Assembly: GCA_017989485.1 (NCBI GenBank)
Contig: JAGNPU010000167.1
Location: 1-5,267, forward strand
Reading direction: 5' to 3'
Source of the DNA: Neisseriaceae bacterium
GTDB taxonomy: Bacteria > Pseudomonadota > Gammaproteobacteria > Burkholderiales > Neisseriaceae
DNA: 5,267 nt
Shown here: piece by piece, positions 3,034 to 5,174 of the stretch
Layout: every line of letters starts with the position of its first letter
Numbering within the stretch: the stretch's first letter is position 1
Notes under the pieces: generated by a model
What the model saw: only the letters and a program-made list of their open reading frames with translations
What the model was told of the DNA's origin: nothing
Database searches by the model: none
Made by a program: the position numbers and the translations under genes

Positions 3034-3309
3034 TTAATAGGTTGACGTAAAATCACCCTCCTTAGGATTTAAAATAAACCCTGATAACCCACCCTCACAC
3101 GCTATTTTTCTGTAGGCATAAATCTTGGCGATTCGCAGGTCTTTCCCTAATCGACATTGATCACCTGGCTGTATGACGCCTATCTCACCAGCAAGGTCTT
3201 TAACCTCTTTTTGCACGCTAATCGCCACTTGTGCCGTCACAGGCTGCATCGGTTCAGAGCACCCGGTGATGGCCAACACCATTAAAGTAAAAAATAAGCG
3301 TTGAGGCAT
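3034..3309 (-). CDS. Small putative lipoprotein, function unknown
   Basis: A 91-residue protein. Its N-terminus is a type II signal peptide: a basic start (MPQR), a hydrophobic core (LFFTLMVLAI) and the lipobox ITGC with the lipidated Cys at position 17, leaving about 75 mature residues. Ser at +2 after the Cys suggests outer-membrane rather than inner-membrane retention by the usual Lol rule. The mature part has two further cysteines (C52 in GDQCRLG, C71 in KIACEGG) that could form a disulfide in the periplasm. I do not recognise the family. The ATG is preceded by AAAAGGG on the minus strand (3319-3325) at normal spacing. It lies just left of the duplicated tRNA terminator and convergent with the small membrane protein gene. 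No clear promoter is visible. Confidence 0.75.
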   Translation of the reverse strand: MPQRLFFTLMVLAITGCSEPMQPVTAQVAISVQKEVKDLAGEIGVIQPGDQCRLGKDLRIAKIYAYRKIACEGGLSGFILNPKEGDFTSTY

Positions 3310-3343
3310 TTTTCTGATCCCTTTTAATCTGGTTCACACTATC

Positions 3344-3389
3344 TTCAACAGGCACAAAAAAAGATGCGTATTCAAAAAATGCACATCTT
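3344..3389 (-). repeat. Diverged second copy of the tRNA-Leu terminator region
   Basis: The 27 bp at 3344-3370 match 4704-4730 at 24 positions, and the second hairpin arm is also shared. The hairpin pairs AAGATGCGTA (3361-3370) with TGCACATCTT (3380-3389), with one mismatch and one G-T wobble, so it is a weaker, decayed form of the perfect stem at 4716-4750. Like that copy it lies downstream of a tRNA-Leu 3' end (here the 16-bp fragment at 3453) when read on the minus strand. It may still act as a terminator on the minus strand, where the A run becomes a T run. Confidence 0.7.
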
Positions 3390-3452
3390 GTTTATTGGCC
3401 TTAGCCTGATGATGCCCGTACGGTCAGCCCTGCAGAACAAATCTTTAATGAG

Positions 3453-3468
3453 TGGTGCCCAGAAGAGG
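3453..3468 (-). repeat. Distal copy of the tRNA-Leu 3' end (putative attachment site)
   Basis: Sixteen bases identical to 4827-4842, starting exactly at the terminal A of the tRNA's CCA and running into the T arm, in the same orientation as the tRNA. Beyond 16 bp the match to the tRNA stops. This is the structure expected for the displaced half-site left after integration into a tRNA gene. A 60-codon open frame crosses it but has no ribosome binding site and is not annotated. Confidence 0.8.
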
Positions 3469-3714
3469 CTTCTGGCTGTATTAATTAATATTCTTGCTTA
3501 TTCTGCTTTATGCCAACATGCCCATATTCCTTACTGCGCCCAATAAATTCTCGGAAAACCTTATTGGTTTTATAGCACCCATTTTGTGGCACCAGCTTGG
3601 CACCCATAAATGGCATTAAGCTAAAGGCATGGCCGCCCTCAGTTAAGAGGGCTTTTTACACTATTAAATAACTAATCATGCTTAGCTAAAAAATGAGCAT
3701 TAATTGACAAAAAA
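3469..3714. other. AT-rich stretch without a convincing protein gene
   Basis: Together with 3310-3468 this is about 400 bp without a supported coding region. It contains the duplicated hairpin and tRNA fragment at its left, two imperfect copies of a GCACCCAT motif (3575 and 3600), a possible two-tier stem (AGCTT 3594-3598 with AAGCT 3618-3622, enclosing CCAT/ATGG) and an intrinsic terminator at 3635. The frames crossing it lack ribosome binding sites and recognisable residues. Confidence 0.5.
3635..3657 (+). terminator. Intrinsic terminator on the + strand
   Basis: GCCCTC (3635-3640) pairs with GAGGGC (3647-3652) around AGTTAA, followed directly by TTTTT (3653-3657). It would stop + strand transcription, yet no supported + strand gene lies before it inside the element. 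It may serve a small RNA or be left from a lost gene. It would also protect the opposing lipoprotein gene from readthrough. Confidence 0.75.
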
Positions 3715-4152
3715 TCAATAACGACAATTAGAAGAAGACCAATCTTTAATAATGCCTTTTTTATCTGTAATAAAATTATCAACGCACACACGTGGATTAT
3801 TAAGATAAGGGTCATGTGAGCTATTTTGCGTTTTCTTAAATGTATATTGTGAGCCACCATCAGTTCTTTTATGCACACCCCAAGGACTGCCTCTTCTCAT
3901 AATAAGATCATCAATAGATTTACCAACCCATACTTGTCTGACGCTTCTAAATTCTTCGGCTTCTCTATCTCTTTTTAGTTTAATGGCAGCATCTCTTTCC
4001 GCATTTTTTCTTTGGCTTTTTGTCCCCAGCGGATCATTTAACAACTCTTCTAATATAAAATTACTGCCAGAGTTAACACAACCACTTAAAGCCCCTACAA
4101 AAAAAATCATAATGACTAGCCGTAATGGCTTTTTAATGTCCAAAAGATTCAT
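3715..4152 (-). CDS. BamE/SmpA-like small outer-membrane lipoprotein
   Basis: A 145-residue protein with a type II signal peptide: basic residues (KKPLR), a hydrophobic core (LVIMIFFVGAL) and lipobox LSGC with the lipidated Cys at 25. A charged, probably helical stretch follows (about 47-70, rich in K, R, D, E). The C-terminal part has the layout of many small proteobacterial lipoproteins of the BamE/SmpA-like fold: WVGKSIDDLIMRRGSPWGV (75-93), a central strand ending in SQYTF, then a region with C123 (RVCVDNF), a strand with an acidic turn and a final C143 (NCRY); the two cysteines may pair. The exact role is unknown. I chose ATG at 4152 because AGG lies nine bases upstream; a TTG at 4161 is the only nearby alternative. 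It is the only intact gene of the tRNA-Leu element and has its own promoter. Confidence 0.8.
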   Translation of the reverse strand: MNLLDIKKPLRLVIMIFFVGALSGCVNSGSNFILEELLNDPLGTKSQRKNAERDAAIKLKRDREAEEFRSVRQVWVGKSIDDLIMRRGSPWGVHKRTDGGSQYTFKKTQNSSHDPYLNNPRVCVDNFITDKKGIIKDWSSSNCRY

Positions 4153-4196
4153 AAGATTCAACCTAAATTCTAAATTAGTAACATGTTAAATAAATT

Positions 4197-4213
4197 GATA
4201 ATGATATCATTTA
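4197..4213. promoter_or_regulatory. Possible Fur-type operator over the lipoprotein promoter
   Basis: GATAATGATA followed by TCATT matches the classical 19-bp Fur box except for one missing base and the last three positions. It is centred on a palindrome overlapping the -10 box, where a bound repressor would block RNA polymerase. The AT-rich setting makes chance similarity possible, so this is a weak assignment. Confidence 0.3.
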
Positions 4214-4228
4214 AAAAACACCAGTCAA
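4201..4228 (-). promoter_or_regulatory. Sigma-70 promoter for the BamE/SmpA-like lipoprotein gene
   Basis: On the minus strand TTGACT (4223-4228) and TATCAT (4201-4206) are separated by 16 bp, each one base from consensus. Transcription would start near 4194, giving a leader of about 40 nt before the ATG at 4152. The -10 box lies inside a perfect 12-bp palindrome (AATGATATCATT, 4200-4211). Confidence 0.72.
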
Positions 4229-4236
4229 TAATCACA

Positions 4237-4740
4237 CTAATCTAATTCAAAATAATCCAGCGGATTTAATCGATTGCCTAGGCCAGTGCCAGCAAATGCC
4301 TTGGTGCGCACTTCAAAATGTAGGTGCACGCCTTTAGATAAGGTATCCATGCCCTTGGCGTTGCCAGTATCGCCACTCAGGCCAATCTGCTGCCCAGCCA
4401 CAACCAAGTCACCCTGCTTTACATCAATGCGCGACAGGTGGGTATAGAAGGCAAACAAGCCGCCGCCAATATCAATACACACTTGCTTGCCGTAGTCGGG
4501 GTTACATCCCCAAGGTATTTGCCAATCACGTCGCCAAAGGGCATGTGCTTTGGTAGAAAGCCAACAGACTTGTTTACAATGTTCAATTTGATTGACCCAC
4601 GCTTTCGCATCGGCTTTTGTTGGAAGCAACTTAGATCGCCCTATGCCCTTTAGGCGAACGCGGGCAAGATACCCAAGTTGTGTTTTGAGAAGATGCCCAT
4701 GTTTTCGACAGGCATAAAAAAAGATGTGTATTTTATACAC
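4237..4740 (-). pseudogene. Fused remnant: tyrosine-integrase N-terminus joined to the C-terminal half of an M23 metallopeptidase
   Basis: A single open frame of 167 codons with two unrelated parts. Residues 12-54 (RKHG...GYLARVRLKGIGRSKLLPTKADAKAWVNQIE) have the pattern of the arm-type DNA-binding domain at the start of many tyrosine integrases: RK-G, a strand ending in A-VR-KG, then a (P)TKA-A-AW--QIE helix. The core-binding and catalytic domains are absent. Residues about 80-167 are the C-terminal half of an M23 (LytM-type) peptidase: NPDYGKQVCIDIG, FAFYTHLS (96-103), KQGDLVVAGQQIGLSGDTGNA, and HLHFEVRT (139-146) with the H-x-H pair. The upstream H-(x)n-D zinc ligands are missing, so peptidase activity is unlikely. 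The listed start is a GTG inside the tRNA terminator hairpin; an ATG at 4715 is in another frame, suggesting an indel near the integrase start. Residues 55-79 belong to neither part. It lies directly beside tRNA-Leu, the normal place for an integrase gene. Confidence 0.68.
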
Positions 4741-4746
4741 ATCTTT
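4704..4746 (-). repeat. tRNA-proximal copy of the duplicated terminator region
   Basis: Pairs with 3344-3389: 24 of 27 bases match in the first part (4704-4730), and the second hairpin arm is also shared. Each copy lies at a similar distance from a copy of the tRNA-Leu 3' end (80 bp here, 63 bp at the distal site). The duplication therefore covers a longer block than the 16-bp attachment core, although the sequence between hairpin and tRNA end has diverged strongly. Confidence 0.7.
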
Positions 4747-4750
4747 TTTT
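4716..4750 (-). terminator. Intrinsic terminator of tRNA-Leu (bidirectional form)
   Basis: A perfect 16-bp inverted repeat, 4716-4731 against 4735-4750, with a 3-nt loop. Each arm ends in seven A/T bases, so either strand yields a hairpin plus a U run. On the minus strand it lies 77 nt after the CCA end of the tRNA. It covers the GTG start of the fused frame, so a functional start there is doubtful. Confidence 0.9.
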
Positions 4751-4826
4751 ATAAAGCTCGATTATTTAACCAACTGGCACCCGTTTGTCACCGATGCACT
4801 GCCAACCATTGATTAATAAGTAATTA

Positions 4827-4842
4827 TGGTGCCCAGAAGAGG
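4827..4842 (-). repeat. tRNA-proximal attachment repeat (3' end of tRNA-Leu)
   Basis: The 16 terminal bases of the tRNA gene, identical to 3453-3468 in direct orientation. The identity begins exactly at the 3' terminal base of the tRNA, so insertion leaves a complete functional tRNA, as in most tRNA-targeted integrations. Confidence 0.8.
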
Positions 4843-4911
4843 ACTCGAACCTCCACACCTTGCGGCACATGGACCTGAACCATGCGCGTCTACCAATTCC
4901 GCCACCTGGGC
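4827..4911 (-). tRNA. tRNA-Leu (anticodon CAG)
   Basis: Read on the minus strand, an 85-nt class II tRNA. Acceptor arm GCCCAGG pairs with TCTGGGC (last pair G-T), followed by discriminator A and an encoded CCA. The D arm has the typical leucine form (TGGCGG-AATTGGTAGAC). The anticodon arm is CATGG-TTCAGGT-CCATG with anticodon CAG at 4875-4877, reading CUG codons. A variable arm with TGCCGCAAGGTG precedes the T arm, GGAGG-TTCGAGT-CCTCT. The long variable arm and D-loop pattern are diagnostic for Leu. It has its own promoter, structured leader and terminator, and serves as the integration target of the element on its 3' side. Confidence 0.97.
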
Positions 4912-4923
4912 ACTGCGCCTATC

Positions 4924-4968
4924 TTGCCAAAAGACCACACACGCTAGCGTTTAGCGTCTGCTTGGCAA
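4924..4968 (-). other. Stem-loop in the 5' leader of the tRNA-Leu precursor
   Basis: TTGCCAA and TTGGCAA (4924-4930, 4962-4968) are perfect complements enclosing AGAC/GTCT (4932-4935, 4956-4959) and an inner stem ACGCTA/TAGCGT. The leader between promoter and tRNA therefore folds into a multi-tier hairpin before RNase P cleavage. It may help processing or shield the precursor; that role is inference. Confidence 0.5.
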
Positions 4969-5009: not shown

Positions 5010-5101
5010 GTCATATGGCCGCTTTTGTTAAAAATCGGGGGATTTGCGTATCAACCGGGCCTAACGCCCTGCCCTTGGGCCAAAACAAAATAATTGTGAC
5101 G

Positions 5102-5156
5102 CGCCTATTTACAAGTTGCATGCAACATGTAACCATAGGCGTCAGTTGCATGCAAC
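5102..5156. repeat. Nested inverted repeat with a duplicated 12-bp palindrome
   Basis: GTTGCATGCAAC, itself a perfect palindrome, occurs at 5115-5126 and 5145-5156 with identical flanking A on both sides (14 bp identical, 30 bp pitch). The first copy is the centre of a larger inverted repeat: TTACA/TGTAA (5109-5113, 5128-5132) and CGCCTAT/ATAGGCG (5102-5108, 5135-5141). As RNA the two palindromes could also pair with each other. It lies between the 3' end of a minus-strand gene and the tRNA promoter, so it may be a terminator, a protein-binding site or an intergenic repeat. Confidence 0.75.
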
Positions 5157-5174
5157 AGTAAAAGAAGCTTCTGC

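What the first reader, a model, noticed from the sequence alone, without database searches (positions are those of the whole stretch)
3453..4842. Miniature tRNA-Leu(CAG) integrative element bounded by exact 16-bp repeats of the tRNA 3' end
The sequence shows a 16-bp exact direct repeat beginning precisely at the CCA end of a tRNA-Leu gene, 1374 bp apart, enclosing AT-rich DNA with an integrase-like fragment next to the tRNA and one intact lipoprotein gene. By established knowledge this is the signature of site-specific integration at a tRNA. The very small size, with a lipoprotein as the only surviving cargo, suggests either a heavily deleted island or a minimal passenger element mobilised in trans.
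Basis: partly seen in the sequence, partly recalled or inferred. Interest (0 to 1): 0.72.

Follow-up and report, generated by a model that had tools for sequence, protein, structure and literature searches.

The report
Gutted prophage beside tRNA-Leu gene
The last 16 bases of a bacterial leucine tRNA gene recur exactly 1.4 kb away, and the only recognisable genes between the copies are the start of a phage-type integrase, the end of a cell-wall peptidase of a kind found in phages and one intact lipoprotein gene: most likely the two ends of a virus that inserted there and lost its middle, an ordinary but unusually clean fossil.

Summary
The 16-bp repeat is exact (3453-3468, 4827-4842), starts at the CCA end of tRNA-Leu(CAG) and is not expected by chance. 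The segment is most likely a tailed-phage prophage with its middle deleted, not a purpose-built mini-element. About 65 codons of a tyrosine-integrase 5' end, already frameshifted, run at 4495-4501 into the last ~85 codons of an M23 peptidase gene whose full-length relative lies among phage tail and lysis genes in G002. A lipoprotein gene lies between that and attR. Integrase relatives sit at tRNA-Leu(GAG) in 3 of the 6 relatives that have one; in G032 that tRNA end is repeated 46 kb apart around phage genes. Site pairs 11 bp apart, at nearly the same distances from the tRNA end, flank both cores in the window and in G032. A second 29-bp repeat outside attR suggests an older related remnant in tandem. 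No empty site could be shown: the three same-genus genomes have no close match to this tRNA gene. It resembles defective prophages and the att-only state called CIME. Mobilisation in trans is untested. Low-to-moderate interest.

The parts
4827..4911 (-). tRNA-Leu(CAG), the likely integration target
4827..4842 (.). likely attL core: last 16 bp of the tRNA gene including encoded CCA
3453..3468 (.). likely attR core: exact copy of the 16 bp
4775..4792 (+). paired sites TGGCACC/TGTCACC 11 bp apart, 34 bp from the attL core; likely integrase arm-type sites
   Evidence: pairs with the same spacing 35 bp from the tRNA end in G005 and G032
3587..3604 (+). paired sites TGGCACC/TGGCACC 11 bp apart, 118 bp inside the attR core; likely the other arm
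   Evidence: G032 has a TGTCACA pair 11 bp apart 129 bp inside its far core copy
4714..4752 (.). strong hairpin with A/T runs, likely bidirectional terminator downstream of the tRNA
   Evidence: I2; z -5.05 for 4700-4826
4494..4700 (-). integrase 5' fragment, about 65 codons, frameshift near 4584, no catalytic domain
4495..4501 (-). junction: integrase homology ends, M23 homology begins
   Evidence: read by eye against sequences
4237..4495 (-). 3' part of an M23 peptidase gene, likely a phage endolysin
   Evidence: (PF01551, 9.2e-16)
3715..4161 (-). intact lipoprotein gene, likely phage cargo next to attR
4704..4732 (+). repeat D1, inner copy: integrase start region plus hairpin arm
3344..3372 (+). 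repeat D1, outer copy, about 90% identical over 29 bp, beyond attR; possibly a remnant of an older related element
3034..3309 (-). second small lipoprotein gene left of attR; its G002 homologue lies beside tRNA-Gly(CCC)

Best explanation
The segment most likely holds the two ends of a tailed-phage genome that likely entered at the 3' end of tRNA-Leu(CAG) by tyrosine-integrase recombination and then likely lost its middle in a deletion that joined the start of the integrase gene to the end of an M23 peptidase gene. Shown directly: the exact 16-bp cores, the truncated and frameshifted integrase 5' end next to the tRNA, the M23 3' part fused to it, the lipoprotein gene before the far core, and the paired 11-bp-spaced sites inside both ends. 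Inferred: that the cores are attL and attR, that the paired sites are integrase arm sites, that the M23 gene was an endolysin of the same phage, and that one deletion of perhaps 40 kb or more made the junction. The remnant should not be able to excise by itself, since the integrase fragment lacks its catalytic domain; it would stay put unless a related phage supplies integrase and excisionase. The lipoprotein was likely cargo of the lysogen, perhaps changing the envelope or excluding other phages. The repeat outside attR suggests that an older related remnant lies in tandem, as in accretion at tRNA sites.
For: Repeat and tRNA. Integrase: the 65-aa fragment matches integrases in 6 of 60 relatives (48% over 60 aa in G005), plus Kingella, Aquitalea and Neisseria records and Mannheimia phage integrases. 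Of those 6, 3 lie beside tRNA-Leu(GAG), 2 beside tRNA-Thr(CGT) and 1 has no tRNA in the fetched flank. Full-length relative: G032 has the tRNA-Leu(GAG) 16-mer at C1:2046339 and C1:2092492, with the integrase at the tRNA end and a tape measure and a CHAP protein towards the other. M23: PF01551 at 9.2e-16; window 4238-4495 is 81% identical in DNA to G002, where the whole gene follows tail-fibre and Rz-like spanin genes. Sites: two close pairs in the segment, as many in 0 of 2000 shuffles, with matching geometry in G005 and G032. Cargo position: the gene after the lysis gene matches PADLOC PDC-S49 in G002 and RmrA in G032; the lipoprotein's Acinetobacter homologue lies one gene from what I read as phage lysis genes.
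Against: No empty site: the three other genus members have no close match to tRNA-Leu(CAG). No DNA match to the integrase or lipoprotein part was found in 60 relatives (at most 6 candidates scored per genome), so the time and number of deletions are unknown. No DNA match to the segment in 50,697 phage records, and the lipoprotein has no tblastn match in phage or plasmid records. The nearest full-length relative uses another leucine tRNA, is in another genus and has a CHAP instead of an M23 gene; G002, which has the M23 gene, has no match to the integrase fragment. The site motif was chosen after seeing the sequence.
Confidence: 0.85

Rival explanations
1. A minimal passenger or satellite element that lost its own recombinase but is still moved in trans through intact attL, attR and arm-type sites, carrying the lipoprotein.
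For: Both cores exact; both 11-bp-spaced pairs present; lipoprotein intact, with the last 71 residues strongly conserved against A. rudis.
Against: No second copy of the segment found in 61 genomes (capped scoring) or in the phage collection; apart from the lipoprotein the recognisable genes are truncated pieces. No search for a helper phage by site type was made.
Confidence: 0.08
2. A decayed duplicate of the tRNA-Leu gene and its terminator, as in the tandem tRNA-Leu(CAG) pairs of other genera, with unrelated DNA between.
For: G008, G010 and G026 have two tRNA-Leu(CAG) copies close together; in G008 each is followed by a similar hairpin (my reading). D1 repeats the hairpin region on the same side of both cores.
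Against: Identity ends after 16 bp with no trace of the tRNA body; the enclosed DNA includes integrase and M23 pieces; inner D1 reaches into the integrase start, not only a terminator.
Confidence: 0.04
3. A narrower rival to the tandem part only: the outer D1 and the left lipoprotein are native host DNA with a shared terminator style, so there is one remnant and no accretion.
For: GGCAYAAAAAAR is common in the genus: 35 (G000), 33 (G003), 45 (G001) and 56 (G002) sites against 5, 8, 9 and 5 for the reversed pattern. The interval between D1 and the core is only weakly alike, 13 of 1000 shuffles as good. The outer stretch does not fold unusually well (z -0.66). No third tRNA-end copy was found.
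Against: The rest of D1 is rare: TTCRACAGGCA occurs 3 times in the held draft genome, two of them here. The D1 local alignment scores 46 against a shuffle maximum of 27 in 1000.
Confidence: 0.35

Closest known systems
Defective ('cryptic', 'grounded') prophage remnants at tRNA genes (passages of PMC6379469 seen)
   Same: tRNA 3'-end repeat, integrase next to the tRNA, lysis-type gene and cargo at the other end, recombinase lost
   Different: Reduced to about 1.4 kb with both cores and likely arm sites kept; integrase and M23 gene fused at one junction
CIME (cis-mobilizable element: lost integration and transfer genes, kept attL and attR; passages of PMC5704250 seen)
   Same: att-only state and probable tandem accretion
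   Different: Phage-derived here, not ICE- or IME-derived; mobilisation not tested
46-kb prophage-like element of G032 at tRNA-Leu(GAG)
   Same: Integrase group, tRNA-Leu target, 11-bp-spaced paired sites on both sides at nearly the same distances
   Different: tRNA-Leu(GAG); CHAP gene and RmrA-type gene instead of M23 and lipoprotein; about 15 kb of its middle was not read
Phage gene cluster of G002 carrying the M23 gene
   Same: M23 gene 81% identical in DNA over window 4238-4495; one long gene follows it
   Different: Its integrase and att sites were not found here; the following gene matches PDC-S49, not a lipoprotein

Membership tests
Defective prophage integrated at a tRNA gene | Direct repeat of the tRNA 3' end at both ends | tested here: met
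Defective prophage integrated at a tRNA gene | Phage-type integrase gene next to the tRNA, same group in relatives at tRNA genes | tested here: met
   5 of 6 relatives' integrases lie beside a tRNA, 3 of them tRNA-Leu; in the window only the 5' fragment
Defective prophage integrated at a tRNA gene | Phage structural or lysis genes inside | tested here: met
   M23 3' part with a full relative among phage genes of G002; no structural gene left
Defective prophage integrated at a tRNA gene | Empty site or full-length copy in conspecific strains | not testable with these tools
   one genome per species held; the three same-genus genomes have no close match to the tRNA
CIME | attL and attR kept, recombinase lost | tested here: met
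   site function inferred
CIME | Derived from an ICE or IME | tested here: not met
   Recognisable genes are phage-type; no conjugation or mobilisation family reached its cut-off for the ORFs searched. ORF 2697-2936, outside the segment, has a sub-threshold match to a pilin-like conjugal transfer family (E 0.052, 13.2 against cut-off 40)
CIME | Mobilised by a related element | not testable with these tools
   needs an excision assay
Phage satellite (PICI-like) | Own integrase plus replication or packaging-interference genes | tested here: not met
   integrase truncated; no such family among the ORFs searched; the smallest ORFs were not searched
Known phage-defence gene (lipoprotein) | Match to a PADLOC model | tested here: not met
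   no match at E <= 0.01

The most novel reading that the evidence does not exclude
A 1.4-kb phage-derived counterpart of a CIME that still moves: both att cores and both arm-site pairs are kept working by selection so that related tRNA-Leu phages excise and carry it, stacked in tandem on an older copy, with an envelope lipoprotein that excludes competing phages as its only cargo.
Probability: 0.07. Interest if true: 0.6.

Novelty: new member of a known kind. Interest (0 to 1): 0.25.

Why it matters
It is a clean example of how a large prophage likely shrinks to its two ends while the att sites and one cargo gene survive, and perhaps of repeated insertion at one tRNA. The conserved 11-bp paired sites may help to recognise att regions of this integrase group. 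The lipoprotein family, whose C-terminal part is almost unchanged in Acinetobacter and close in Providencia, is an uncharacterised, likely phage-associated cargo worth a phage-exclusion test. None of this changes what is known about prophages.

Tried and rejected
Decayed second tRNA gene: rejected, identity ends after 16 bp. D1 as nothing but a genus-wide terminator style: half true for its GGCAYAAAAAA part, not for TTCRACA. A third copy of the 16-mer marking the far end of an older element: not found; the next best match in the window has 4 mismatches, on the other strand at 4955. Loci at tRNA-Gly(CCC) in G001-G003, where M23 3' tails (G001, G003) or the second lipoprotein (G002) sit beside the tRNA: no tRNA-end direct repeat in the G003 and G002 stretches searched (G001 not searched), so not claimed as insertions. 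The G002 phage cluster as source: it has the M23 gene, but the genome has no match to the integrase fragment. Fold of the lipoprotein: mean pLDDT 74.8, best PDB match OsmE at E 0.014, target TM 0.50, none at E <= 0.001; a BamE/OsmE-like C-terminal domain is only suggested. Lipoprotein in phage and plasmid collections by tblastn: no match. Viral contigs: one locus, by both a single-sequence and an alignment query. Integrase fragment by blastn in phages: no match. Genome-contig scan with XdhC: one distant hit, of no use.

Full report
What is there. The window is the whole contig C57 of a draft genome (G000: 81% complete, 356 contigs). tRNA-Leu(CAG) lies at 4827-4911 on the minus strand. Its last 16 bp recur exactly at 3453-3468, and the match stops at 16 bp on both sides. 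With 3 mismatches allowed there are just these two places, and none of 200 shuffles had two. The 1,358 bp between are 39% G+C, against 57% on the left and 46% on the right.

Integrase fragment. On the minus strand, from about 4700 to 4494, two reading frames joined by a frameshift near 4584 give about 65 codons. They align to residues 9-74 of the G005 integrase (332 aa) and 6-71 of the G032 one (329 aa as aligned). The joined 65-aa sequence matches integrases in 6 of 60 relatives: G005, G032, G029, G015, G040 and G044, the last two weakly (E 9e-4 and 0.006); G000 matched itself. It also matches 4 plasmid-collection records (Kingella, Aquitalea, two Neisseria) and 10 Mannheimia phage records. 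By itself it matched no Pfam model, while the G005 and G032 proteins carry the catalytic domain PF00589, which is missing here. Of the 6 relatives, 3 have their integrase beside tRNA-Leu(GAG), 2 beside tRNA-Thr(CGT), and 1 has no tRNA in the fetched flank.

M23 fragment. ORF 4237-4740 carries an M23 peptidase domain in its second half (PF01551, 9.2e-16). DNA at 4238-4495 is 81% identical to G002 C5. There the full gene (157 aa) follows genes that match a central tail fibre and an Rz-like spanin, with a small gene between that I read as holin-like (its PHROG has no known function). The protein search listed 48 sequences, one of them the window's own. The three best others (94, 89 and 88% identical) cover 51% of the query, and no other listed hit covers more than 58%, so the int-M23 fusion is in no listed hit. 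Integrase homology ends and M23 homology begins at 4495-4501 (read by eye).

A full-length relative. G032 holds the last 16 bp of tRNA-Leu(GAG) twice, at C1:2046339 and C1:2092492; G005 holds one exact copy. Between the G032 copies, start to start 46,153 bp, I read the two outer stretches, about 31 kb of the 46. They hold the integrase beside the tRNA, a tape measure protein (PF20155), a CHAP protein (PF05257) and an HTH-M78 gene near the far copy. This is the layout the window would have had before deletion. Its lysis-type gene and cargo differ.

Att-like sites. TGKCACC occurs four times inside the window's segment, as two pairs exactly 11 bp apart (3587/3598 and 4775/4786). Counting pairs 10-12 bp apart, none of 2000 shuffles had as many. 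The motif was chosen after seeing the sequence, so this number is optimistic. Independent support, read by eye: the gap between integrase and tRNA has a pair 11 bp apart in G032 (16440/16451 of L107) and in G005 (1777/1788 of L074). Each ends 35 bp from the tRNA end, against 34 in the window. G032 also has a pair (985/996 of L106) 129 bp inside its far core copy; the window's pair starts 118 bp inside. The name arm-type site is recalled from phage integrases; binding was not tested.

Lipoprotein. 3715-4161 encodes 148 aa (or 145 aa from an ATG at 4152) with a lipobox-like LSGC. 13 proteins were listed, one of them the window's own; named ones are Acinetobacter and Providencia. Against the A. 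rudis copy the last 71 residues are 67 of 71 identical, with dN 0.039 and dS 2.3, the latter saturated. That copy, in viral contig L072, lies one gene away from genes that I read as Rz-like, endolysin-like and holin-like. No Pfam model matched the window protein and no PADLOC model. The gene after the lysis-type gene matches the PADLOC models PDC-S49 in G002 and RmrA in G032; in G032 it lies between that gene and the far core, in G002 the edge was not found. Lysogen cargo is therefore the likely role, and phage exclusion a guess.

Second repeat. 3344-3372 and 4704-4732 are 90% identical over 29 bp and lie on the same side of each core, 80 and 94 bp away. The local alignment scores 46, against a maximum of 27 in 1000 shuffles. 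Part of it, GGCAYAAAAAAR, is common in the genus: 35 sites in G000, 33 in G003, 45 in G001 and 56 in G002, against 5, 8, 9 and 5 for the reversed pattern. The rest is rare: TTCRACAGGCA occurs 3 times in G000, two of them here. The interval between repeat and core is only weakly similar (13 of 1000 shuffles as good), and the outer hairpin stretch is not unusually stable (z -0.66, against -5.05 for the inner). I read this as an older, related remnant outside attR, at somewhat better than even odds. No third tRNA-end copy was found.

What could not be shown. The three other genus members have no close tRNA-Leu(CAG): their best match is 76%, the level of G000's tRNA-Leu(CAA), and none lies in the fetched flanks of their rnr-like genes, where the gene sits in the three other genera that I read (G008, G006, G060). 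In G003 the 3' end of the GntR-type gene follows mocA and a small gene, with no tRNA between (gene names are my reading). So the tRNA itself sits at an accessory place here, and a true empty site is not available. DNA of the segment plus its left border (3300-4820) matched only the M23 part, in G001-G003, that is 3 of 60 relatives, with at most 6 candidates scored per genome. The lipoprotein was not searched as a protein in those genomes.

Literature. CIMEs are defined in PMC5704250 (passages seen). Grounded or cryptic prophages are discussed in PMC6379469 (passages seen). Four paper searches (listings only for the other papers) showed no title on this element; they were narrow and I claim no absence in print.

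Verdict. The finding is real and its integration reading holds. The thing is best filed as a defective prophage remnant in an att-only, CIME-like state. It is a new member of a known kind.

Noticed in passing
window 4827-4911; L108-L111: tRNA-Leu(CAG) is beside an rnr-like gene in the three other genera read (G006, G008, G060) but not in the fetched rnr flanks of the four genus members; in this genome it sits beside a GntR-type gene, so the tRNA gene itself was moved or acquired, or lost elsewhere.
   Followed up: partly
L067 6910-6994, L068 7725-7806, L070 6434-6709: Beside tRNA-Gly(CCC), G003 and G001 carry a tail of the same M23 gene (in G003 next to small lipoprotein-like genes), and G002 carries a homologue of the window's second lipoprotein; no tRNA-end repeat found in the L067 or L070 stretches searched.
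   Followed up: partly
L083 5925-6607, L087 5264-6050: G008 and G026 have two tRNA-Leu(CAG) genes 596 and 700 bp apart (start to start); in L083 each is followed by a similar hairpin, an apparent tandem duplication.
   Followed up: no
L066 5407-7452; L106 1988-3067: Genes after the phage lysis-type gene match PADLOC PDC-S49 (G002) and RmrA (G032).
   Followed up: no
genus G000-G003: GGCAYAAAAAAR is 4 to 11 times more frequent than its reversed control, probably a common terminator context in this genus.
   Followed up: no
window 5097-5157: Palindromic GTTGCATGCAAC repeats near the 3' end of the GntR-type gene, seen also in G003 and in a stretch that aligns in G001 (74%); possible operators.
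   Followed up: no
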